DNA of 64,000 nucleotides from Limnohabitans sp. MORI2. Lineage in GTDB: Bacteria > Pseudomonadota > Gammaproteobacteria > Burkholderiales > Burkholderiaceae_C. The translations under genes were made by a program, and so were the position numbers. The notes below the pieces were generated by a model that ran no database searches, was not told the origin of the DNA, and was given only the letters and a program-made list of their open reading frames with translations. Shown piece by piece: positions 58,422 through 62,658 of the stretch (the stretch's first letter is position 1; every line of letters begins with the position of its first letter). Where the stretch lies: positions 186,001-250,000 of the forward strand of contig NZ_AP027058.1 in the NCBI RefSeq assembly GCF_027925025.1. Reading direction: 5' to 3'.

Positions 58422-58931
58422 ATGAGTAGCGACAAACCCGAGACAAACAGCACCGCTTGGTACGTGGTCCACACCAAGCCCCGCCAAGAAAACCGAGCCC
58501 TTGAAAACCTGCAAAACCAAGGCTTCAATTGCTTCTTGCCCACCATGCAGGTGCAAAAGTTGCGCAACCAAAAAGTGCAGACCATCACCGAGCCCATGTT
58601 CAGCCGTTATCTGTTCATTGAGCTCGATGACCAAAATCAAAACTGGGGGCCCATCCGTTCTACCTTGGGTGTGAGCAAGTTGGTCAGCTTTGGGCCACAG
58701 CCCGCCAAAGTGCCGCCCGAGTTCATCGCCTTCTTAAAAGAAGCGCCACCCGAAACCCTTGAACGCATGTTTGCTCCGGGCGACAACGTGCAAATTGCTA
58801 GCGGCCCGCTGCAGGGCTTAGAGGGTAAATACATCGCCCACGATGGCGAAACCCGAGCCTTTGTGTTAGTAGATTTGCTGGGGCAGCCGCAAAAACTGCG
58901 CATGGCGGTCGAGAGCCTGCGTGTGGTCTAG
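58422..58931 (+). CDS. rfaH: RfaH/NusG-like transcription antiterminator
   Basis: A NusG paralogue of 169 aa. The NGN domain spans about residues 12-110 (AWYVVHTKPRQENRALENLQ, FSRYLFIEL) and a KOW motif follows near 117-150 (PGDNVQIASGPLQGLEG). The N-terminus matches RfaH rather than housekeeping NusG, and no secE or ribosomal L11 gene is adjacent. RfaH is recruited to paused RNA polymerase by the ops DNA element and boosts long cell-surface operons. It lies directly before polysaccharide genes, and an ops-like sequence is found at 62622. Upstream, GTTAG/CTAAC (58402-58420) forms a small hairpin. Confidence 0.88.
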   Translation: MSSDKPETNSTAWYVVHTKPRQENRALENLQNQGFNCFLPTMQVQKLRNQKVQTITEPMFSRYLFIELDDQNQNWGPIRSTLGVSKLVSFGPQPAKVPPEFIAFLKEAPPETLERMFAPGDNVQIASGPLQGLEGKYIAHDGETRAFVLVDLLGQPQKLRMAVESLRVV

Positions 58932-58952
58932 CTTCACGGCGATAATTCTCAA

Positions 58953-60404
58953 ATGCATCAAGTTCTTCCTGTCATTCTTTGTGGCGGCTCAGGCACACGT
59001 TTGTGGCCTTTGTCGCGTGCGGGCTTTCCCAAGCAGTTCTTGGTTTTATCGGGCAACACCAGCTTGTTTCAGCAAGCGGTTGAGCGCGTGAACCAACTGG
59101 GAGCTGCAGACATCACCGTGGGCAACACTTTGGTGGTCACCAACGAAGAGCACCGCTTTTTGTCGCTAGAACAGCTGCGCGAAATCAAAGGCGTCAACGC
59201 CACCCTGCTGCTAGAGCCCACAGGCCGCAACACTGCCCCCGCACTCACCTTGGCGGCCTTGCAAGCCACTGAAGGCGACCAAGACCCCATTTTGGTTGTC
59301 ACCCCCGCCGACCAAACCGTGCAAAACCCCGCAGCGTTTCAGCAGGCGCTGCAGCAAAGCATTCGTGCGGCGGCAAATGGCGGCATCGTTATTTTGGGCA
59401 TCACGCCCGACAAGCCCGAAACTGGCTACGGCTACATCCAGCAGTCCGGCACAGCCGGTGCGCAGGGTGAATACACCGTGGCGCAGTTTGCCGAAAAGCC
59501 AAGCCTAGAGGTGGCCCAGGCATACCTAGCCGGTGGGCAACACACTTGGAACAGCGGCATGTTTGTGCTGCGTGCCAGCACATGGCTCAAAGCCCTGCAG
59601 CACTTCCGCCCAGACATCGCCACAGCCACACAAGCAGCATGGCAAGGCAAAACCATCGATGCACCTTTTGTGCGCCCCAGCAAAGAAGCCTTTGCCCAAG
59701 TGCCGTCTGAGTCGGTCGACTACGCCGTCATGGAAAAGTGCCCAGGCTCTAGCTACCCCATCCACATGGTGTCGCTGGACGCCGGCTGGAACGACCTAGG
59801 CGCGTGGGACGCCGTGTGGCAAGTCAACCAAGACGGCCACCAAGACGCCCAAGGCAACGTGGTGCAGGGCGACGCTTTGTTGGCCGACACCACCAACACC
59901 TTCATCCACGCAAGCAGCCGCTTGGTGGGGGCTGTTGGCGTGAGCAACCTCATCGTGGTAGAAACGCCAGATGCCGTGCTGGTGGCCGATCGCAGCCAAA
60001 GCCAGAACGTTAAAAAACTCGTGCAACAGCTGGAAGCCAAAAAGCGCGAAGAGCTGAGCTTGCACCGTAAAGTGCACCGCCCATGGGGCTGGTACGACAG
60101 CATTGACGAAGCCGAGCGCTTCAAAGTCAAACGCATTCAAGTCAAACCTGGCGCGAGCCTCAGTTTGCAAAAACACCACCACCGTGCCGAGCATTGGATT
60201 GTGGTCAAAGGCACAGCCCAAGTGACGTGTGGCGACAAGGTCACGCTCGTCACAGAAAACCAATCCACCTACATCCCTCTGGGCGAAGTGCACCGTTTGG
60301 CCAACCCAGGCACCATTCCGCTTGAAATCATCGAAGTGCAATCGGGTAGCTATTTGGGTGAAGACGACATCATCCGCTTTGAGGACACATATGGGCGCGG
60401 CTAA
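58953..60404 (+). CDS. manC: Mannose-1-phosphate guanylyltransferase / mannose-6-phosphate isomerase
   Basis: Bifunctional enzyme of 483 aa supplying GDP-mannose for surface polysaccharide. The N-terminal pyrophosphorylase signature VILCGGSGTRLWPLSR is followed by the lysine in FPKQFL. The C-terminal cupin isomerase, about residues 365-475, contains HRPWGWYDSIDEAERFKVKR and LQKHHHRAEHWIVVKG. Its last 14 bases overlap the following fcl reading frame. It starts 21 bases after rfaH on the same strand. Confidence 0.96.
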   Translation: MHQVLPVILCGGSGTRLWPLSRAGFPKQFLVLSGNTSLFQQAVERVNQLGAADITVGNTLVVTNEEHRFLSLEQLREIKGVNATLLLEPTGRNTAPALTLAALQATEGDQDPILVVTPADQTVQNPAAFQQALQQSIRAAANGGIVILGITPDKPETGYGYIQQSGTAGAQGEYTVAQFAEKPSLEVAQAYLAGGQHTWNSGMFVLRASTWLKALQHFRPDIATATQAAWQGKTIDAPFVRPSKEAFAQVPSESVDYAVMEKCPGSSYPIHMVSLDAGWNDLGAWDAVWQVNQDGHQDAQGNVVQGDALLADTTNTFIHASSRLVGAVGVSNLIVVETPDAVLVADRSQSQNVKKLVQQLEAKKREELSLHRKVHRPWGWYDSIDEAERFKVKRIQVKPGASLSLQKHHHRAEHWIVVKGTAQVTCGDKVTLVTENQSTYIPLGEVHRLANPGTIPLEIIEVQSGSYLGEDDIIRFEDTYGRG

Positions 60405-61372: not shown

Positions 61373-62502
61373 CGCAGAAAACTCAACCCAAAGTCGCCCT
61401 CATCACGGGCATCACAGGCCAAGATGGCTCTTACCTCGCTGAGTTCTTGCTAGAGAAGGGCTACATTGTTCACGGCATCAAGCGCCGTGCTTCGCTGTTC
61501 AACACCCAACGCGTGGACCACATCTACCAAGATCCACATGTGGAGCATGCCAACTTCAAGCTGCACTATGGCGACCTGAGCGACACGAGCAACCTCATTC
61601 GCATCGTGCAAGAAACCCAGCCCGATGAAATCTACAACCTCGGTGCACAAAGCCATGTGGCCGTGTCATTTGAGTCGCCTGAATACACCGCAGATGTAGA
61701 CGGCATTGGCACCCTGCGCCTGCTTGAAGCTATTCGTATCTTGGGCCTTGAAAAGAAAACCCGCTTTTACCAAGCAAGCACCTCAGAGTTGTATGGCTTG
61801 GTACAAGAAATCCCGCAAAAAGAAACCACGCCTTTTTACCCACGCAGCCCCTACGCCGTGGCCAAGATGTATGCGTATTGGATTGTGGTGAACTACCGCG
61901 AAGCCTATGGCATGTATGCCTGCAACGGCATCTTGTTTAACCACGAAAGCCCACGCCGTGGCGAAACCTTTGTCACCCGCAAAATCACCCGAGGCCTAGC
62001 CAACATCGCTCAAGGCCTAGAGCAATGCCTGTACATGGGTAACCTAGACGCCCTGCGCGATTGGGGCCACTCCAAAGACTACGTACGCATGCAATGGATG
62101 ATGCTGCAGCAAGACCAAGCGGAAGACTTTGTGGTGGCAACCGGTGTGCAGCACAGCGTGCGCCAGTTCATTCAGTGGAGTGCAGAAGAGCTGGGCGTTA
62201 CCCTCAAGTTCGCGGGCGAAGGTGTCAACGAAACTGCAACCGTCACAGCCATCAAAGGCGACAAGGCCCCGGGCCTCAAGGTGGGTGATGTGATCGTCAA
62301 AATCGATCCCCGCTACTTCCGCCCCACCGAGGTGGAGACTTTGCTGGGCGACCCATCCAAGGCCAAAGCTAAGCTGGGCTGGATGCCAGAAATTACCGTA
62401 CAGCAAATGTGCGCCGAAATGGTGGCTGCCGATTTGCAAGAGGCCCAAAAACACGCATTGCTCAAAAAGCACGGGTACCAACTCAATGTGAGTGTGGAAT
62501 AA
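61369..62502 (+). CDS. gmd: GDP-mannose 4,6-dehydratase
   Basis: Converts GDP-mannose to GDP-4-keto-6-deoxymannose, precursor of GDP-fucose and GDP-rhamnose. The protein is 377 aa with the Rossmann motif ALITGITGQDGSYLAEFL, NLGAQSHVAVSFE, the catalytic STSELYG and YAVAKMYAYW (YxxxK). Its ATG overlaps the fcl stop. With manC it forms the nucleotide-sugar segment of the polysaccharide cluster. If fcl is truly broken, the 4-keto sugar must be used another way. Confidence 0.96.
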   Translation: MTQKTQPKVALITGITGQDGSYLAEFLLEKGYIVHGIKRRASLFNTQRVDHIYQDPHVEHANFKLHYGDLSDTSNLIRIVQETQPDEIYNLGAQSHVAVSFESPEYTADVDGIGTLRLLEAIRILGLEKKTRFYQASTSELYGLVQEIPQKETTPFYPRSPYAVAKMYAYWIVVNYREAYGMYACNGILFNHESPRRGETFVTRKITRGLANIAQGLEQCLYMGNLDALRDWGHSKDYVRMQWMMLQQDQAEDFVVATGVQHSVRQFIQWSAEELGVTLKFAGEGVNETATVTAIKGDKAPGLKVGDVIVKIDPRYFRPTEVETLLGDPSKAKAKLGWMPEITVQQMCAEMVAADLQEAQKHALLKKHGYQLNVSVE

Positions 62503-62658
62503 GCTAGTGTTGATAAAAAATTTAACACGTTACTAGTTACAAAGTATTCTTGCTGAGCCAATTAACCGTCGTATTGATAAGGGCATGCCTCATAATCGAA
62601 GGCTTTGCTTTTGAGTGAAAAGGCGGTAGCCTGCCTGATTTCATTTCGCTTCAATTTT
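62503..62658 (+). promoter_or_regulatory. A+T-rich leader and promoter region with ops element
   Basis: The 156 bases after gmd are A+T-rich and contain no credible gene. CATAAT at 62591-62596 is the best -10 candidate, but its -35 is poor. An ops-like sequence follows at 62622. This layout (promoter, then ops within the first tens of bases of transcript) fits RfaH-controlled operons. Confidence 0.5.
62622..62633 (+). promoter_or_regulatory. ops element (RfaH recruitment site) candidate
   Basis: GGCGGTAGCCTG matches the core ops sequence GGCGGTAG followed by pyrimidine-N-T-G. ops pauses RNA polymerase and recruits RfaH to the non-template strand. It lies on the coding strand ahead of the UppS-type gene and the epimerase, 3.7 kb downstream of the RfaH-like gene, so the pair supports specific antitermination of the following polysaccharide operon. 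Confidence 0.7.

What the first reader, a model, noticed from the sequence alone, without database searches (positions are those of the whole stretch)
58422..62633. RfaH-like antiterminator together with its ops site in one polysaccharide cluster
A NusG paralogue of RfaH type stands first in a polysaccharide cluster, and the transcribed leader before the UppS-type gene holds GGCGGTAGCCTG, matching the ops core GGCGGTAG-Y-N-T-G. The ops lies in an A+T-rich leader after a CATAAT -10 candidate, at the place seen in enterobacterial surface-polymer operons. The manC-gmd part lies before the ops and would not need the factor, whereas the downstream part would.
Basis: partly seen in the sequence, partly recalled or inferred. 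Interest (0 to 1): 0.7.

Follow-up and report, generated by a model that had tools for sequence, protein, structure and literature searches.

The report
RfaH-ops switch before a uppS cluster
In a freshwater Limnohabitans-type bacterium, a gene for an RfaH-like transcription helper stands near a sugar-coat gene cluster whose leader carries a strongly conserved RfaH landing site, so a control switch known from gut bacteria probably works here too, in front of a gene for a lipid-carrier enzyme.

Summary
An RfaH-family gene (58422-58931, over both NCBIfam RfaH cut-offs) opens a polysaccharide cluster, and an exact ops (62622-62633) lies in the leader of uppS. The 12-mer alone says little genome-wide (5 matches; reversed control 6), but comparison does. 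In 7 of 84 genus genomes a uppS leader carries NAYAAT, a stem-loop region, then ops. The ops 11-mer is 97% identical pairwise there, the flanks 33-40%. The two degenerate uppS copies I met have a degraded ops. ops also precedes WbaP, sugar-transferase, MarR_EPS and manC genes elsewhere in the family. The uppS start lies 36-40 nt after ops, in 6 of 7 without a Shine-Dalgarno, and it is the genome's only uppS. Most likely: RfaH-ops antitermination and ribosome recruitment with a diverged JUMPstart-like leader. Odd: this RfaH lacks three of the four ops-contacting side chains of E. coli RfaH, yet ops stays intact; and in 30 of 45 relatives' loci rfaH directly precedes uppS without ops. No function was tested. 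AlphaFold2 could not decide the C-terminal fold: the E. coli control came out alike.

The parts
58422..58931 (+). rfaH, RfaH-type NusG paralogue, 169 aa
   Evidence: TIGR01955 158.1 bits and NF006534 128.5 bits, both over cut-off
58953..60404 (+). manC, mannose-1-phosphate guanylyltransferase / mannose-6-phosphate isomerase
   Evidence: TIGR01479 over cut-off
60391..61372 (+). fcl, GDP-L-fucose synthase, reading frame broken near 60860
   Evidence: two overlapping frames; the second part matches NF047922, below its cut-off for a whole protein
61369..62502 (+). gmd, GDP-mannose 4,6-dehydratase
   Evidence: TIGR01472 over cut-off
62591..62596 (+). CATAAT, -10 candidate, conserved as [CG]A[TC]AAT in 7 of 7 uppS leaders
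   Evidence: promoter use not shown
62604..62619 (+). stem-loop TTTGCT-TTTG-AGTGAA ending 2 nt before ops, weak in the window
   Evidence: fold -1.6 kcal/mol; P 0.22 in the end-stem test
62622..62633 (+). ops element GGCGGTAGCCTG; expected pause at U 62632
   Evidence: exact match; conserved against diverged flanks
62659..63408 (+). uppS, undecaprenyl diphosphate synthase, with the start codon position conserved in 7 leaders (GTG 62659); ATG 62686 is an alternative
   Evidence: TIGR00055 over cut-off; start comparison
63496..64000 (+). first gene after uppS, NAD-dependent epimerase, runs on beyond the window; beginning of an 18-kb same-strand run
   Evidence: PF01370; ORF list of the own genome

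Best explanation
An RfaH-ops switch of a Comamonadaceae polysaccharide cluster. RNA polymerase starts in the leader or reads in from upstream and pauses at ops (U 62632). RfaH, encoded 3.7 kb upstream, is recruited there through the small hairpin of the non-template strand, stays on the polymerase, keeps NusG and Rho off, and brings a ribosome to the uppS start, which has no Shine-Dalgarno, so that uppS and the run of about 18 kb behind it are made. Shown here: protein family, exact ops, its conservation against diverged flanks, degraded ops at degenerate uppS copies, ops in other polysaccharide leaders, missing Shine-Dalgarno. Inferred: the pause, recruitment of this RfaH, action against Rho, ribosome recruitment, the promoter, the length of the operon.
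For: RfaH family. ops 11-mer 97% pairwise identical in 7 leaders, flanks 33-40%. In intergenic sense-strand sequence of 45 rfaH loci the core gives 5 exact and 0 one-mismatch hits, the reversed core 0 exact and 6 one-mismatch hits. ops before uppS, WbaP, a sugar transferase and MarR_EPS in the genus and before MarR_EPS and manC in two other genera, in genomes that have an RfaH relative. Degraded ops at the two degenerate uppS copies met. Six of seven uppS starts without Shine-Dalgarno pairing, as stated for RfaH-controlled genes in PMC7819879 (passages). E48, F56, I93, R138 and K10 of E. coli RfaH kept.
Against: H20, R23 and R73, which contact ops in E. coli RfaH, are N, N, L. In 30 of 45 loci rfaH directly precedes uppS without ops, so RfaH-uppS linkage does not need ops. 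uppS starts are also weak in many of those adjacent genomes, and the two MarR_EPS leaders have ordinary Shine-Dalgarno pairing. G003 has an ops before WbaP, but no full RfaH was found in this genome of 99% completeness. The motif is not enriched genome-wide. No expression data.
Confidence: 0.78

Rival explanations
1. The ops is only a strong RNA polymerase pause in the leader, and RfaH here works in cis on its own transcript without reading ops letters.
For: Three of four ops-contacting residues are replaced; rfaH-uppS adjacency without ops is the commoner arrangement (30 of 45); the preprint PMC13015549 (sections 5, 7, 8 read) reports RfaH homologues beside long operons that act without ops and lack ops-binding residues.
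Against: The loop letters GGTA and the C3:G8 pair, needed by RfaH rather than for pausing (PMC5995543, passages), are invariant in 7 of 7 uppS leaders and in the other leaders found. Residues for autoinhibition (E48, I93, R138) are kept.
Confidence: 0.14
2. The conserved block is chiefly an RNA leader element (5' stem-loop) for mRNA stability or another binding protein, and ops is part of it.
For: A stem ends 0-3 nt before ops at P<=0.05 in 8 of 12 leaders and in G511, not G609; 0 of 73 other sites reach this.
Against: Stem letters differ between genes and species, and the stem is weak in the window, G064, G031 and G609, while the ops letters stay the same.
Confidence: 0.05
3. The match is a coincidence.
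For: Genome-wide count equals the reversed control (5 against 6).
Against: Conserved at a fixed place in 7 leaders with diverged flanks.
Confidence: 0.01

Closest known systems
E. coli RfaH with ops / JUMPstart leaders
   Same: RfaH-family protein, 12-nt ops in the leader of a long polysaccharide operon, weak or absent Shine-Dalgarno, stem-loop just before ops
   Different: rfaH is linked to its likely target; three of four ops-contacting residues replaced; stem sequence unlike Rfam JUMPstart (14.5 bits, gathering score 35); first gene is the genome's only uppS
RfaH cluster CL6 of Wang et al. 2020 (PMC7593976, Results read in part)
   Same: RfaH genes whose neighbours encode undecaprenyl pyrophosphate synthase
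   Different: The passages read do not mention ops for CL6; whether this protein falls in CL6 was not tested
Monomorphic, ops-independent RfaH homologues (preprint PMC13015549, abstract and sections 5, 7, 8 read)
   Same: Encoded beside a long operon; key ops-binding residues missing
   Different: A conserved ops is present here; the fold could not be decided
UpxY and LoaP antiterminators
   Same: NusG paralogues encoded with their target operon (recalled, and PMC7593976)
   Different: Scores under the UpxY and LoaP cut-offs (81.3 of 100; 57.9 of 125)

Membership tests
RfaH (TIGR01955 / NF006534) | Score over the curated cut-offs | tested here: met
   158.1 against 144.5; 128.5 against 124
RfaH (TIGR01955 / NF006534) | NusG's Rho-contacting I-F-G loop absent | tested here: met
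   L-L-G at the places of E. coli RfaH L145-I146-N147; residues named in PMC7593976
RfaH (TIGR01955 / NF006534) | ops-contacting side chains K10, H20, R23, R73 | tested here: not met
   Only K10 kept; N, N, L at the other three. This lowers 'reads ops as E. coli RfaH does', not family membership by score
RfaH (TIGR01955 / NF006534) | Autoinhibition contacts E48, I93, F130, R138 | tested here: inconclusive
   E, I, Y, R: three kept, F130 is Y
RfaH (TIGR01955 / NF006534) | Alpha-helical C-terminal domain in the free protein | tested here: inconclusive
   AlphaFold2 gives beta, but also for an E. coli RfaH with a like alignment
ops element | Sequence GGCGGTAG-N-N-T-G in the leader of a target operon | tested here: met
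   62622-62633
ops element | Conserved in related leaders | tested here: met
   7 of 7 uppS leaders found by the model; position 1 is A in two (G083, G033) and position 10 is C in the window
ops element | Pauses RNA polymerase and recruits RfaH | not testable with these tools
   needs biochemistry
JUMPstart RNA (Rfam RF01707) | Score over gathering score | tested here: not met
   14.5 bits against 35; 0 of 300 genomes of the order over the cut-off
UpxY / LoaP | Score over NF033644 / NF033641 cut-offs | tested here: not met
   81.3 against 100; 57.9 against 125

The most novel reading that the evidence does not exclude
Comamonadaceae RfaH reads the same ops letters with a rebuilt pocket (K10 kept; Arg at the place of N70 in 45 of 45 genus rows and in the three rows from two other genera, instead of R73), and in this lineage an ops stands before uppS where uppS has been parted from rfaH. 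The genus would then preserve the step from cis action on an adjacent gene (rfaH-uppS, no ops) to sequence-directed recruitment, on a gene that is the only one of its kind in the genome.
Probability: 0.35. Interest if true: 0.75.

Novelty: new variant of a known kind. Interest (0 to 1): 0.52.

Why it matters
RfaH is thought to descend from a NusG copy that first acted on its own neighbourhood and later learned to read ops (PMC7593976, PMC13015549). This genus seems to hold both states side by side: rfaH next to uppS without ops, and rfaH apart from uppS with ops. It also breaks the expected pairing between the ops letters and the E. coli residues that read them, so how ops is read becomes testable in ordinary freshwater bacteria. 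A sole uppS behind an ops would mean that an RfaH-type switch can govern an essential step (essentiality is general knowledge, not tested here).

Tried and rejected
Monomorphic (always beta) RfaH: AlphaFold2 gave a beta C-terminal domain for the window protein. An E. coli RfaH (P0244) with a like 47-row alignment also came out beta, so the result does not discriminate and is not used.

ops upstream of rfaH: no exact core in the up to 400 nt before rfaH in the 45 loci; best cases have 1 mismatch.

Rfam JUMPstart: 0 of 300 genomes of the order over the cut-off, 117 with E<=1.

Leader model in 399 family genomes: 11 with a match, 4 of them this leader. Of the 7 weak ones (E 0.005-0.045) G609 and G511 have an exact ops before a polysaccharide gene (the G511 site also overlaps the ends of two ORFs of 168 and 221 codons); L222, L223 and L227 lie in ORFs; L224 and L228 showed no core. 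In the genus search two weak hits (E 0.017, 0.025): L135 showed no core; L136 has a one-mismatch core whose context I did not follow.

Foldseek gave RfaH and NusG structures at the top. Plasmids: 217 records with relatives, all under 60% identity, not followed.

Full report
What is there. The window is C1:186001-250000 of a 2.65-Mb genome; its nearest named relative by RfaH is Limnohabitans sp. Jir61, 95%. At 58422-58931 lies an RfaH-family gene over both curated RfaH cut-offs. Behind it come manC, fcl with a broken frame, gmd and uppS. The ops GGCGGTAGCCTG is at 62622-62633; gmd ends at 62502 and the conserved uppS start, GTG 62659, lies 37 bases after the first ops base.

Chance. The bare 12-mer occurs 5 times in the genome and its reversed control 6 times; the other four lie inside ORFs of 258 to 544 codons. 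The motif alone proves nothing. In the 156-base leader 6e-5 exact matches are expected.

Conservation. I searched 61 genomes of the genus with the RfaH protein; 48 have a match at E<=0.001, which includes NusG-only genomes. Of the 42 matches stronger than E 1e-34 I read 41: the own one and 40 others, as far as their contigs reach, up to 20 kb; G017 was not taken. With four named loci these are 45 loci. In 30 of 45 the uppS match starts 24-96 nt behind rfaH, with no ops between. In 6 of 45 (window, L016, L058, L059, L060, L061) the two are apart, by 0.2 kb or 1.6-3.8 kb, and in each a live uppS has an ops whose second base lies 57-64 nt before the start of its match. In 9 of 45 no uppS was seen; two of these contigs end close behind rfaH. 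A covariance model of the leader finds 7 of 84 genus genomes at E<=5.3e-13. In these 7 the ops 11-mer is 97% identical pairwise, the stretch to uppS 40%, the stretch upstream of the -10 33%. The six rfaH genes with this leader, and one short-contig row (L017), form a group with support 100/96.

Degenerate copies. G033 has a second, degenerate uppS with a degraded ops. The own genome has a uppS remnant before a second manC (L008 about 12029-12255), with an ops-like stretch in the corresponding place that differs from GGCGGTAGCGTG at 4 of 12 positions. So ops is intact at 7 of 7 live copies of this leader and degraded at both degenerate copies I met; degenerate copies were not searched for systematically.

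Other leaders. In intergenic sense-strand sequence of the 45 loci the core gives 5 exact and 0 one-mismatch hits, the reversed core 0 exact and 6 one-mismatch hits; three more exact sites (window, L058, L067) were masked by ORFs that run through from upstream start codons. Of 82 distinct GCGGTAGCGTG sites in the loci given to (most from the search of 61 genus genomes), 67 lie in ORFs of 180 codons or more. Of the 15 others 8 stand before polysaccharide genes: uppS (G057, G041, G064), WbaP (G003), a sugar transferase (G037, and the near-identical leader of G039 at a contig end), MarR_EPS (G042; G031 by likeness); 7 do not. In two other genera an exact ops stands before MarR_EPS 56 nt behind the rfaH match (G609; that RfaH scores 128.0, under the cut-off) and before a manC-like start, named by eye, 13 kb from rfaH (G511; RfaH 179.8 bits).

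Leader structure. A stem whose 3' arm ends 0-3 nt before ops beats shuffles of the same letters (P<=0.05) in 8 of 12 leaders; G511 does (P 0.017), G609 does not (P 0.32): 9 of 14. Counting the uppS leaders once and G037/G039 once, 4 of 7 independent leaders have it. None of 73 other GCGGTAGCGTG sites (67 in long ORFs, 6 not) reaches P<=0.05. The window's stem is weak (P 0.22). A conserved stem-loop of JUMPstart elements is stated in PMC2864571 (passages), and Rfam's model puts its stem directly before the 12 ops letters, but that model scores only 14.5 bits here. In the window, C at ops position 10 lengthens the hairpin of ops itself, AGGC-GGTA-GCCT.

Translation start. A start codon 36-40 nt after the second ops base is present in all seven (GTG six times, ATG once). 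Pairing with the 16S tail there is +1.9, +0.8, +0.6, +1.3, +0.8, -0.2 and -2.2 kcal/mol, against a median of -2.7 for the first ATG of 39 long ORFs of the window. Many adjacent rfaH-uppS genomes have weak uppS starts too, and of four other ops leaders two (MarR_EPS) pair ordinarily and two do not, so the missing Shine-Dalgarno is not tied to ops alone. [quoted passage not shown]

Target. One UppS passes the Pfam cut-off in the genome; two further places are sub-threshold fragments. Of 17 genomes searched 14 have one uppS match and 3 have none. The same-strand run continues to L008:23553, about 18 kb behind ops, with gaps of 371 and 249 bases; nine of its proteins were scanned and include epimerases, a UbiA-type enzyme, an FAD oxidoreductase and a glycosyltransferase. 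One transcript is not shown.

The protein. By E. coli numbering K10, R16, Q24, E48, F56, T72, I93, L96, R138 and L142 are kept, F130 is Y, and H20, R23, R73 are N, N, L. Over the 45 loci H20 is N in 42, R73 is L in 40, and N70 is R in 45. G511 has H20 and R23 but Q for R73; G609 has N, R, L. PMC5995543 (passages) names K10, H20, R23 and R73 as the side chains that contact ops. The ops letters thus persist where most of these have changed. AlphaFold2 could not settle the C-terminal fold, because the E. coli control behaved alike.

Presence of RfaH. 52 of 84 genus genomes have a match over the TIGR01955 cut-off. G003, with an ops before WbaP, has only a 32.9-bit fragment at a contig end.

Known or new. 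RfaH and ops are known. PMC7593976 (section 5 parts 2 and 3, section 11) reports a cluster CL6 with uppS neighbours; PMC13015549 (abstract, sections 5, 7, 8) reports ops-independent RfaH beside long operons. Searches of the open-licence library for RfaH with Betaproteobacteria, with Burkholderia/undecaprenyl, Limnohabitans, Burkholderiales and Comamonadaceae listed no paper that is about ops in this group; I saw listings, not all texts, and subscription papers are not held. I file it as a new variant of a known kind.

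Noticed in passing
window 60391-61372: fcl (GDP-L-fucose synthase) has its frame broken near 60860; sequence error or pseudogene cannot be told.
   Followed up: no
L008:12029-12255 (own genome, beyond the window): uppS remnant with a degraded ops in front of a second manC, 85% identical to the first.
   Followed up: partly
L023 and L069 (G011), rfaH: E48 and R138 of E. coli RfaH, the autoinhibition salt bridge, are V and C together in these two rows, where uppS directly follows rfaH: candidates for a non-autoinhibited RfaH.
   Followed up: no
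L021, L062, L063: Sister rfaH genes with no polysaccharide genes next to them (helicase-like genes follow), at the same phasin/TetR neighbourhood: RfaH there would have to act in trans.
   Followed up: no
L187 (G003), site of L119: Exact ops before WbaP in a genome of 99% completeness without a full RfaH match.
   Followed up: partly
L226 (G609), L067 (G042): MarR_EPS regulator genes (TIGR04176, over cut-off) begin 25-26 nt after an ops.
   Followed up: partly
L008:7535-10916 (own genome, beyond the window): Small multidrug-resistance-type protein, UbiA-type enzyme and FAD oxidoreductase inside the polysaccharide run; reminiscent (recalled) of a polyprenyl-linked sugar pathway.
   Followed up: no
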